Shown here piece after piece: positions 26,365 to 61,172 of a stretch of 64,000 bases of DNA. A program made the translations under genes and the position numbers. The notes beneath the pieces are model-generated. The model was not told the DNA's origin, did no database searches, and saw nothing but the letters and a program-made list of their open reading frames with translations. Source of the DNA: Sphingobium sp. (lineage in GTDB: Bacteria > Pseudomonadota > Alphaproteobacteria > Sphingomonadales > Sphingomonadaceae); assembly GCA_035196065.1 (NCBI GenBank), contig CP136575.1, positions 1,145,001 to 1,209,000 of the forward strand. Direction: 5' to 3'. Within the stretch, counting starts at the first letter, position 1, and every line of letters starts with the position of its first letter.

Positions 26365-28866
26365 GTGACGCTCCCTCCCATCATCACTGACTGGTTCGCC
26401 TCACGCGGTTGGGTGCCGCGGCGGCATCAGCTGGAGATGGTCGACGCGGCGGCGGAAGGGCGGCACGCCCTGCTCGTCGCGGCAACTGGCGCGGGAAAGA
26501 CACTGGCCGGCTTTTTGCCGACTTTGGCGGAGCTGATTTCTGACCCCGATTTTGACGGTCTCCAGACCCTCTACATCTCTCCGTTAAAAGCGCTTGCGGT
26601 CGATGTGCGGCGCAACCTTCTGATGCCGGTCGAGGAAATGGGTCTGCCGATCCGGATCGAGACACGCACCGGCGATACATCGTCGGACAAAAAGGCGCGG
26701 CAACGGGCGCGGCCGCCGCATATCTTGCTGACCACGCCAGAATCGCTGTCGCTGCTGCTGAGCCATGAAGACAGCCTGCTGATGTTTGCGGGGTTGAAGC
26801 GGGTGATCATCGACGAGGTCCACGCCTTTGCCAATTCAAAGCGTGGCGACTTGCTGTCTCTCAGCCTGGCACGGCTGCAGGCGATCAGCCCGAAAATGCA
26901 GCGCGTCGGCCTGTCCGCAACGATATCCGATCCCGATGCCTATCGCGGCTGGCTCGCACCCTATGGCGATATCGATGCCGTGCGGCCGGTTGAAGGCGAG
27001 GCTGCGGCTGATCCCGATTTGCAGATATTGCTGCCCGAGGGCCGGGTGCCCTGGTCGGGGCATAGCGGCCATTATGCGATCCCGCAGCTGATCGAGGAAA
27101 TTGGCCGCAACCGCACGACGCTGATTTTCTGCAACACGCGCTTCCTTGCCGAATTCATCTTCCAGAAATTATGGGATGCGAATGATCCCAAATATCCGAT
27201 CGGGATCCATCATGGATCGCTGTCGGTAGAGGCGCGGCGTAAGGTTGAGAGCGCGATGGCAGCTGGCGAGCTACGCGCCCTTGTTTGCACCGCCAGCCTC
27301 GATCTCGGCGTTGACTGGGGCGATGTCGATTGCGTGATTCAGATGGGGGCGCCCAAGGGAAGCTCGCGGTTGTTGCAGCGTATCGGCCGGTCGAACCACC
27401 GGATGGACGAACCGAGCAAGGCGCTTCTCGTTCCCGGCAACCGTTTCGAATATCTTGAGGCGCAGGCGGCGTTCGATGCGGTGGAGGAGGGCGTGCGCGA
27501 TGGCGAAGTCTTCCGCCCCGGTGCCTATGATGTCCTGGCGCAACATGTCATGGCCTGTGCTTGTGCCGCGCCATTTAACGAGGCCGATCTGCTTGACGAA
27601 GTGCGTTCGGCCATGCCCTATAGCGCGATCAATGCCGAAACCTTTGCCCGGGTGATCGAATTTGTCGCAACCGGTGGTTATGCGCTGAAAGCCTATGATA
27701 AGTTCCGCAAGCTTATTCCGTTCTCTTCCCTCCCGCTTGCGGGAGGAGGCGGGGGAGGGCCTGAGGGCGCACAAAGCCCGCTTCGCTCGCTCGCTCCCCT
27801 AACCCCTCCCGCAAGCGGGACAGGGATGTCGTGGCGGCTCTCCCACCCCAAATTTGCCGCGCAGCATCGCTTCAACGCCGGGATTATCGTTGATGCGCCG
27901 ATGCTCGATGTCCGCTTCAAAAATGGCCGCACTCTCGGGCGAGTCGAGGAAAATTTCGCATCGCAGCTGCGCCCCGGCAATGCCTTTATCTTTGCAGGGA
28001 TTGCGGTCGAGGTGGAGGCTATCCGTGACCTTGATCTGATCGTGCGCGCCGCAAAAAAGGCGACGCAAATCCCATCCTATATGGGCGCACGGATGCCGCT
28101 GACGACGCATCTCGCAAGCCGGGTGCGCGCCTTCCTGACGGACCGGGCAGGATGGGCGCGTTTCCCCGACGATGTACGCGAATGGCTGGAAATGCAGGAT
28201 TGGCGCAGCGCGCTTCCCGAACCGGGGCAATTGCTTGCCGAAACCTTCCCGCATGAAGGACGGCATTATCTGGTGGTTTATCCCTTTGAAGGGTGGAATG
28301 CACACCAGTCGCTCGGGATGTTGGTCACCAAAAGGATGGAGATGCGCGGGCTGAAGCCGATGGGTTTTGTCGCCAATGATTATGCTCTCGGCGTCTGGGG
28401 GCTGGAAGAGATCAGCGATCCCGCCGCGCTCTTTTCTGCCGATATCCTTGCCGACGAATTTGTTGAATGGGTAGAAAATAGCTACCTGTTAAAGCGTGCC
28501 TTTCGCGAGGTTGCCGTCATTTCGGGGCTGGTGGAGCGCCAGCACCCGGGCAAGCGTAAATCGGGCAAGCAGGTCACTTTTTCGACCGACCTGATTTATG
28601 ATGTGCTGCGCAAATATGAACCCGATCATCTGCTGCTCGAAGCCGCATGGGCTGATGCGCGCGAACGCTTGACCGATGTCGGCAGGCTTGGCGACCTGCT
28701 TGATCGGGCGGCTGACACGATGCTGCACATGCAGCTTGAAAAGGTCAGCCCGATGGCGGTGCCGCTGATGGTGATGATCGGGCGCGAAAGCGTGGCGCAA
28801 GGCTCGGTTGACGATGCACTCCTCGCCGAGGCGGAGAGCCTTGCCGGGATTGCGATGACGCCCTGA
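26365..28866 (+). CDS. Ligase-associated DNA-damage-response DEXH-box helicase (Lhr-type) with in-frame repeat insertion
   Basis: An 833-aa Lhr-like helicase. It has Walker A ATGAGKTLAGF (about residues 38-48), DEVHAF (motif II), SAT and the motif VI RIGRSNHRM, then Lhr core domains. In many bacteria this subtype is encoded with an ATP-dependent DNA ligase, an exonuclease and PdeM. Here PdeM lies 1.9 kb downstream. Residues about 453-489 are a Gly/Pro/Ser-rich stretch encoded by a palindromic repeat (27724-27831). Flanking residues (AYDKFRKLIP and WRLSHPKFAAQHR) look like contiguous family sequence, so the stretch is an insertion tolerated in frame. The GTG start has a weak ribosome site. Confidence 0.88.
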   Translation: MTLPPIITDWFASRGWVPRRHQLEMVDAAAEGRHALLVAATGAGKTLAGFLPTLAELISDPDFDGLQTLYISPLKALAVDVRRNLLMPVEEMGLPIRIETRTGDTSSDKKARQRARPPHILLTTPESLSLLLSHEDSLLMFAGLKRVIIDEVHAFANSKRGDLLSLSLARLQAISPKMQRVGLSATISDPDAYRGWLAPYGDIDAVRPVEGEAAADPDLQILLPEGRVPWSGHSGHYAIPQLIEEIGRNRTTLIFCNTRFLAEFIFQKLWDANDPKYPIGIHHGSLSVEARRKVESAMAAGELRALVCTASLDLGVDWGDVDCVIQMGAPKGSSRLLQRIGRSNHRMDEPSKALLVPGNRFEYLEAQAAFDAVEEGVRDGEVFRPGAYDVLAQHVMACACAAPFNEADLLDEVRSAMPYSAINAETFARVIEFVATGGYALKAYDKFRKLIPFSSLPLAGGGGGGPEGAQSPLRSLAPLTPPASGTGMSWRLSHPKFAAQHRFNAGIIVDAPMLDVRFKNGRTLGRVEENFASQLRPGNAFIFAGIAVEVEAIRDLDLIVRAAKKATQIPSYMGARMPLTTHLASRVRAFLTDRAGWARFPDDVREWLEMQDWRSALPEPGQLLAETFPHEGRHYLVVYPFEGWNAHQSLGMLVTKRMEMRGLKPMGFVANDYALGVWGLEEISDPAALFSADILADEFVEWVENSYLLKRAFREVAVISGLVERQHPGKRKSGKQVTFSTDLIYDVLRKYEPDHLLLEAAWADARERLTDVGRLGDLLDRAADTMLHMQLEKVSPMAVPLMVMIGRESVAQGSVDDALLAEAESLAGIAMTP
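27724..27831. repeat. Palindromic repeat inserted in frame in the helicase gene
   Basis: Two hairpin-forming arms, CCTCCCGCTTGCGGGAGG (near 27729-27746) and TCCCGCAAGCGGGA (near 27807-27820), are inverted relative to each other. They enclose GC-rich linker sequence. The 108 bases are divisible by three with no stop in the helicase frame. A related element lies at 61083-61172 between yebC and ruvC. The structure and in-frame behaviour recall the palindromic elements found in Rickettsia coding sequences, but the sequence is different. Confidence 0.75.
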
Positions 28867-52749: not shown

Positions 52750-52983
52750 GCGCCGCGCATTGGCGACGAACCGAATTCCGGTTTCGCTTGCATATAAGAA
52801 CGAATCGCTCTAATTTGCTTGTGCGGACCGGGCCCCTCTGGCGCTCGCTTCTTCGGAAGGAACGTGATGTCGGCCGCATCGGATCTCCGGTGCTAGGTTT
52901 TGCGGTCCCTGTTTCCCCCGAATACCCTCGCCTGGCATCGGAGCATCCGATTGAGCAAAACATTGTTCAAGAGGAGCTTTATC

Positions 52984-61082: not shown

Positions 61083-61172
61083 AGTCCCCCTCCCGCATGC
61101 GGGAGGGCCTATAACCCTCGATCGTCCTTGGGACAGGCCCTCCCCAGGCCCTCCCGCAAGTGGGAGAGGAAG
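61083..61172. repeat. Palindromic repeat between yebC and ruvC, related to the helicase insertion
   Basis: CCCTCCCGCATGCGGGAGGG (61087-61106) is a perfect palindrome. CCTCCCGCAAGTGGGAGAGG (near 61150-61169) is its shorter counterpart at the other end, and the linker contains GGACAGGCCCTCCCC. The form (hairpin, GC-rich linker, hairpin) is like the element at 27724. The right edge reaches the ribosome-binding site of ruvC (GAGAGGAAG). Confidence 0.75.

What the first reader, a model, noticed from the sequence alone, without database searches (positions are those of the whole stretch)
27724..27831. Palindromic repeat translated in frame inside the Lhr-type helicase
The helicase frame runs through a 108-base, inverted-arm repeat and gains about 36 Gly/Pro/Ser/Ala-rich residues (about 453-489) without a stop or shift. 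Flanking residues AYDKFRKLIP and WRLSHPKFAAQHR are family-like on both sides, so a mobile or dispersed element has entered a gene and been tolerated as a surface loop. The analogous case known to me is the palindromic elements in Rickettsia genes. A sister copy sits at 61083.
Basis: partly seen in the sequence, partly recalled or inferred. Interest (0 to 1): 0.7.

Follow-up and report, generated by a model that had tools for sequence, protein, structure and literature searches.

The report
Mobile palindrome inside helicase, nuclease-linked
A short repeated DNA palindrome has slipped into a DNA-repair helicase gene without breaking it, and its ends match those around a small nuclease gene that may be the missing enzyme behind this kind of bacterial repeat.

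Summary
The helicase frame (26365-28866) runs through a palindrome pair at 27724-27831, where homologues have a turn of about six residues. The pair is a dispersed element, and in its own genome it also lies in frame in ImuB-like and DnaE2-like genes. In one small Sphingorhabdus-related clade, four species hold palindrome pairs of different sequence at this same helicase turn and two hold none. That needs at least three arrivals if element kinds do not interconvert. The structure model puts the insert as a low-confidence (probably disordered) loop on the winged-helix wing.

Going further, the element's ends match the ends of a unit in the same genome that encloses a DUF559 nuclease gene. In the genus, 48 of 57 testable DUF559 genes are bracketed by matched inverted repeats, against 0 of 425 ORFs in the helicase neighbourhood. 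Palindrome type tends to follow the DUF559 tree. Of 15 plasmid DUF559 genes fetched, 9 show bracketing, Sinorhizobium and Deinococcus among them. RAYT, the known REP transposase, was not found in this genome. A DUF559 profile matches a solved mobile-intron protein. I propose DUF559 as the cognate enzyme of these repeats, a RAYT analogue. Cutting and movement are inferred.

The parts
26365..28866 (+). Lhr-type / ligase-associated DEXH helicase ORF, 833 aa, GTG start
   Evidence: Pfam DEAD, Helicase_C, WH_Lhr, DEAD_assoc; some plasmid homologues annotated ligase-associated DNA damage response DEXH box helicase
27508..28068 (+). winged-helix domain WH_Lhr (residues 382-568) that contains the insert
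   Evidence: AF2 model: residues 456-486 pLDDT<50, between strands 450-453 and 489-492
27724..27831 (+). type-A palindrome-pair element translated in frame
   Evidence: ends match the DUF559 unit ends at 29 of 34 and 31 of 35 aligned positions
27728..27745 (.). left palindromic head
27804..27820 (.). right palindromic head
61087..61169 (.). sister palindrome-pair copy, between two ORFs

Best explanation
The insert is a non-autonomous palindrome-pair element, about 100 bp with inverted ends of about 36 nt that each contain a hairpin. It landed in the tight turn of the helicase's winged-helix wing, replaced that turn in frame, and is translated as a Gly/Pro/Ser-rich loop. It belongs to a population of repeats whose full unit in the same genome is the same left end, a DUF559 nuclease gene (128 aa) and the same right end (G000:C1:1897587-1898009, outside the window; the ORF ends at 1898015, so its last codons run through the right end). 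Shown: the dispersal, the in-frame insertion, the matching ends, the bracketing of most tested genus DUF559 genes by matched inverted repeats, and the joint variation of nuclease and palindrome type. Inferred: that the DUF559 protein recognises and nicks or cuts the hairpins, and that this, with host repair, copies the short elements to new places, as RAYT transposases are thought to do for REPs. The nuclease gene itself mostly stays put and passes on vertically. Inside genes, only copies of frame-keeping length and open frame survive.
For: Dispersal. Unit ends equal element ends: (helicase insert scores 24 and 27 against the unit ends; 50 shuffles reach at most 11 for the left end; because the ends are inverted repeats of each other, both orientations score alike). 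Bracketing: 48 of 57 testable DUF559 genes in the genus and 9 of 15 fetched plasmid DUF559 genes have flank inverted repeats scoring >=16; controls 1 of 960 random positions, 0 of 425 ORF boundaries in helicase loci and 2 of 83 neighbour ORFs. Pairing is specific: own flank pairs 57 of 70, crossed pairs 191 of 2000. Type tends to follow the DUF559 tree: 22 changes against a shuffled mean of 49.7, 0 of 200 as low. The 9 genomes with a type-A DUF559 unit hold 4-27 type-A heads beyond two per unit; the 16 genomes without any PF04480 match hold 0-3. The DUF559 profile matches 3hrl (1e-34) and 3r3p 'Mobile intron protein' (2.3e-5). RAYT family PF01797 not found in this genome. In-frame copies in ImuB-like and DnaE2-like ORFs. 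In Caulobacter the SOS response of a methylase mutant depends on a DUF559 protein (PMC12907096, passages).
Against: No cutting or movement was seen. DUF559 units mostly sit at orthologous sites. 9 of 57 genus and 6 of 15 plasmid DUF559 genes show no matched flanks (two of the 9 are cut off by contig ends). Of 36 genus genomes without a type-A unit, 8 hold four or more type-A heads, among them G015 (66), G437 (32) and G431 (16). Type D does not cluster on the tree (104 of 500 shuffles as low). The type labels are my own text patterns, and orthologous near-copies favour clustering. No target duplication was established. The Caulobacter study reads its DUF559 protein as a mismatch-repair enzyme.
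Confidence: 0.6

Rival explanations
1. The element is an ordinary REP or REPIN moved by a RAYT tyrosine transposase that was lost from this genome or acts from elsewhere.
For: Two palindromes in inverted orientation as in REPINs; RAYT-like ORFs exist in G431 and G437.
Against: No PF01797 match in this genome, and a match in only 4 of 45 genus genomes. No type-A palindrome was seen in the loci of the G431 and G437 ORFs (2.2-2.3 kb each), and in G431 the palindromes nearby are of another sequence. No consistent tag: in 12 copies GTAG occurs once, inside a head, and CGTC at an element end twice.
Confidence: 0.12
2. DUF559 is a Vsr-like repair nuclease. The palindromes around it are its regulators, terminators or binding sites, and the dispersed copies spread by recombination or an unknown enzyme.
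For: Caulobacter VsrA with a DUF559 domain is interpreted as a mismatch-repair endonuclease (PMC12907096, passages). DUF559 genes are mostly vertical.
Against: Other ORFs lack such bracketing (0 of 425 and 2 of 83); the flanks share extended ends with the dispersed elements; nuclease and palindrome type vary together.
Confidence: 0.25
3. One old insertion in the clade ancestor drifted or was converted into the different sequences now seen at the helicase site, with two later losses.
For: All occupied species fall in one clade. Inserts of the window species and of L180 are alike (92 of 108 aligned bases), and those of L182 and L183 also align better than shuffles (score 32 against at most 14.5).
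Against: The inserts of L182 and L183 have relatives in their own genomes. The sister of L182, L128, is empty. The window insert against L183 aligns no better than the best of 200 shuffles (14.5 and 14.5).
Confidence: 0.3
4. The loop is a functional protein feature selected for helicase activity.
For: It has stayed open and in frame in four species.
Against: Low model confidence; unlike sequences occupy the same place. Between two genomes of one species the insert has 2 synonymous and 2 non-synonymous base differences in 39 codons, the rest 30 and 19 in 772, too few to judge selection.
Confidence: 0.05

Closest known systems
REPINs with RAYT transposases (PMC3116915, search listing only; PMC3733652, passages and section 15)
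   Same: Short palindromes in inverted pairs, dispersed; a gene flanked by the same palindromes; some copies inside repair genes including DnaE2
   Different: No RAYT found here; no consistent GTAG tag; the flanked gene is a DUF559 nuclease
Rickettsia palindromic elements (PMC3767692, passages)
   Same: 100-150 bp palindromic repeats, some in frame inside genes; different element groups in some orthologues; encoded parts in solvent-exposed areas
   Different: Sequence kinship not tested; no nuclease link in the passages read
CGTC-tagged REPs of alphaproteobacteria (PMC3733652, passages)
   Same: Inverted dimers, mostly in the same bacterial class; the paper says they apparently lack a dedicated transposase
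   Different: CGTC at an element end in only 2 of 12 copies here
[quoted passage not shown]
   Same: As recalled, about 108 bp with two palindromes; the Sinorhizobium DUF559 gene is flanked by palindrome pairs of a dispersed repeat
   Different: Identity with RIME not tested; the original paper is not held
EDxHD homing endonucleases such as I-Bth0305I (PMC3943268, passages)
   Same: Profile match of DUF559 to a solved mobile intron protein (that this entry is I-Bth0305I is recalled); PMC9403480 (passage) also puts a DUF559 gene in this family
   Different: Bracketed by inverted palindromes; no intron or intein was looked for
Caulobacter VsrA, a DUF559 protein (PMC12907096, passages)
   Same: DUF559 nuclease of an alphaproteobacterium, linked to DNA damage in vivo
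   Different: Interpreted as mismatch repair; the word stem palindrom does not occur in that text

Membership tests
REPIN/RAYT system | pair of palindromes in inverted orientation, many copies | tested here: met
REPIN/RAYT system | RAYT (Y1 transposase) gene in the genome | tested here: not met
   with positive controls in 5 of 14 genomes
REPIN/RAYT system | GTAG-type tag at the palindrome | tested here: not met
   GTAG in 1 of 12 copies, inside a head
MITE | terminal inverted repeats shared with a coding parent | tested here: met
   ends shared with the DUF559 unit
MITE | target site duplication | tested here: inconclusive
   none evident by eye in the flanks printed; no clean empty site available
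MITE | parent encodes an active transposase | not testable with these tools
   DUF559 activity on these ends unknown
Rickettsia palindromic element | translated in frame inside preexisting genes | tested here: met
   (open frames; translation itself not measured)
Rickettsia palindromic element | sequence similarity to RPE families | not tested
   no RPE sequence was fetched
EDxHD nuclease (DUF559) | conserved E, D, H, D residues | tested here: met
   E25, D54, E65, D67, G68 and H71 invariant and D78 nearly so in 43 sequences; the mapping to the EDxHD motif is my reading
EDxHD nuclease (DUF559) | nuclease activity on its own element | not testable with these tools
   needs purified protein

The most novel reading that the evidence does not exclude
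DUF559 proteins are the mobilising enzymes of a widespread class of GC-rich palindrome-pair repeats in alphaproteobacteria and beyond (a Deinococcus plasmid included). They would be a second, homing-endonuclease-like solution to the REP problem, independent of RAYT transposases, and would explain repeats such as those around the Sinorhizobium gene.
Probability: 0.5. Interest if true: 0.9.

Novelty: new variant of a known kind. Interest (0 to 1): 0.74.

Why it matters
For one large group of alphaproteobacterial palindromic repeats the literature says that no dedicated transposase is apparent (PMC3733652). A nuclease gene framed by matching palindromes, whose family tree tends to follow palindrome type, gives a concrete candidate for repeats of this general sort that can be tested with one purified protein. 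It also gives a setting outside Rickettsia where small repeats add segments to what look like working proteins.

Tried and rejected
RAYT as the driver: rejected for this genome; no type-A palindrome seen beside the RAYT-like ORFs of two relatives. Known RNA families: none at the element. Viral contigs: no DUF559 relative. Empty site of a DUF559 unit: not found. Sinorhizobium strains K101 and C101 both carry the unit. The Shinella stretch L406 was fetched but not analysed. L407 holds about 1.16 kb more than L391 at the repeat beside DUF559, not identified. One shared origin of all helicase inserts: not supported, not excluded. RIME identity: original paper not held, passages only in another paper, and a search with the name RIME1 found none. 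One search failed by a script error and was rerun. In one search the N-terminal part of the two-genome helicase comparison was spoiled by an indel; redid it. (Sinorhizobium region) included an IS4-like transposase, so its place counts say nothing on the repeat; one search repeated it with the repeat alone.

Full report
Observation. The helicase frame 26365-28866 is open through a 108-base palindrome pair at 27724-27831. Pfam places the insert inside the Lhr winged-helix domain, residues 382-568. In the AF2 model, residues 456-486 have pLDDT below 50 and lie between strands 450-453 and 489-492, so the insert sits at a hairpin turn, the wing (30 sequences, mean pLDDT 73.5). The other rows of the alignment have a turn of about six residues there. 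Of 92 helicase ORFs read, 69 have 19-25 residues between the two flanking motifs, 7 have 51-70, and 16 were not parsed. Several rows, among them two of the 7, are second fetches of one locus.

Distribution. Of 45 genus genomes, 38 gave a match. Five carry an insert here (the window genome, G433 of the same species, G001, G436, G437) and 33 show none. At family level 371 of 397 genomes matched, and by the match counts only the window genome is split at one locus (the match list was cut short). On trees built without the insert, the occupied species plus two empty ones (L181, L128) form one clade with ultrafast bootstrap 95 (codons) and 99 (protein). The branching order is L183 occupied, window species occupied, L180 occupied, L181 empty, then L182 occupied with L128 empty. 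The window insert and that of L180 are one kind. Those of L182 and L183 form one or two further kinds: they align with each other better than shuffles but differ in length and heads. L182 also aligns above shuffles with the window species and L180 (25 against 21.5, 34.5 against 15). Each has relatives elsewhere in its own genome. On this tree, if kinds do not turn into each other, at least three arrivals are needed whether there are two kinds or three.

Other genes. In the window's genome an element of this kind is also in frame in a DnaE2-like and an ImuB-like ORF about 2 kb apart. The left end of the DnaE2 insert matches the unit end at 29 of 35 positions (score 23, shuffles at most 11); its right end is degenerate (score 14 against 12). 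In the 12 listed plasmid homologues of each (of 494 and 1869 records) the matched stretch is shorter than the query by about 20-30 residues for ImuB and 35-44 for DnaE2. Of the other copies whose ORFs I read, several lie just upstream of a gene start; the rest were not classified. Di Nocera and colleagues already reported REPs inside repair genes including DnaE2 (PMC3733652, section 15), so that part is not new.

The nuclease link. One place in the genome (C1:1897587-1898009) has the same left end, a DUF559 ORF and the same right end. The ends agree with dispersed copies beyond the palindrome. The nuclease frame is open through both ends, and its stop lies just after the right end. The ImuB insert reads like that frame with its middle missing (my reading).

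Bracketing test. One search found 65 DUF559 matches in 29 of 45 genus genomes. I located 58 by tblastn; 3 fetched loci were not located, one partial match in a long ORF was dropped, and 3 were not fetched. Of 57 testable, 48 have flank inverted repeats at score 16 or more; two of the 9 misses are cut off by contig ends. Of 15 plasmid loci, picked by hand from 38 records with a match, 9 pass. Controls: 1 of 960 random positions, 0 of 425 ORF boundaries, 2 of 83 neighbour ORFs, one of the two being itself a DUF559 gene. Limits of the controls: the 960 and the 425 come from 80 helicase loci, which are the same neighbourhood in many species, and the 83 count some ORFs twice. Own flanks match in 57 of 70, crossed flanks, same-type pairs included, in 191 of 2000.

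Coevolution. On a tree of 73 DUF559 proteins, nine flank classes ('none' 16 rows, 'other' 5 rows included) need 22 changes against 49.7 shuffled, 0 of 200 as low. For the 52 typed rows alone 9 changes are needed, the least possible being 6. Types were assigned by my own text patterns, type E is a mixed bag, type D does not cluster, orthologous near-copies favour clustering, and many forks are open. Type-A head counts are higher in the 9 genomes with a type-A unit (Mann-Whitney p=1.7e-4, not corrected for phylogeny); G433 was counted as having one on its downstream flank only. Eight of the 36 genomes without a type-A unit hold four or more heads.

What DUF559 is. The profile of 43 DUF559 proteins matches PDB 3hrl (1e-34) and 3r3p, named Mobile intron protein (2.3e-5). 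PMC9403480 (passage) puts a DUF559 gene in the EDxHD homing endonuclease family, and PMC12907096 (passages) links a Caulobacter DUF559 protein to DNA damage. Of the 14 library papers holding the word DUF559 I read passages of four; one of these, PMC9927313, proved to be a match to DUF5590. None of the passages mentions palindromic repeats beside DUF559. The searches gave no paper that, by title and abstract start, links the two. This covers the open library only.

Elsewhere. The Sinorhizobium DUF559 gene has palindrome pairs on both sides. Its upstream repeat alone matches 93 plasmid records at 255 places, 19 of them in the record of the query; 4 records hold most of it, and the listed others match about a third of it.

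Against. No movement was shown. DUF559 genes are mostly at orthologous sites, which resembles RAYT genes as I recall them but also fits a plain repair gene; only the type-E units were 70-81% alike without shared flanks. No target duplication and no clean empty site of a unit were found. On selection in the loop the two-genome comparison is too small to tell.

Noticed in passing
61087-61169: Sister palindrome pair between a YebC-like ORF and a RuvC-like ORF, with a RuvA-like ORF next (names recalled from sequence).
   Followed up: partly
1137-1333: Manganese (yybP-ykoY) riboswitch above the Rfam gathering score.
   Followed up: no
52820-52881: terC RNA above the Rfam gathering score.
   Followed up: no
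L400, L399, L389: In Sphingomonas parapaucimobilis a DUF559 gene sits between sufB and sufC, between transhydrogenase subunit genes, and between a GatB/YqeY gene and dnaG.
   Followed up: no
L260, L261: RAYT-like ORFs of two relatives; in L260 the palindromes nearby are of a GTCCC..GGGAC kind, in L261 the scan found none.
   Followed up: no
L392, L404, L405: Sinorhizobium DUF559 gene with palindrome pairs on both sides; the upstream repeat alone has 19 places in one record.
   Followed up: partly
L178, L176: G437 (7% contamination) holds two different helicase copies, one with and one without an insert.
   Followed up: no
L344, L365, L350: Some DUF559 flanks (types C and D) look like two nested stems rather than one (my reading; not folded).
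   Followed up: no
L090:1834-1950: A type-A copy of G001 lies on the N-terminal side of an aminotransferase-like ORF and is open in its frame (name recalled).
   Followed up: no
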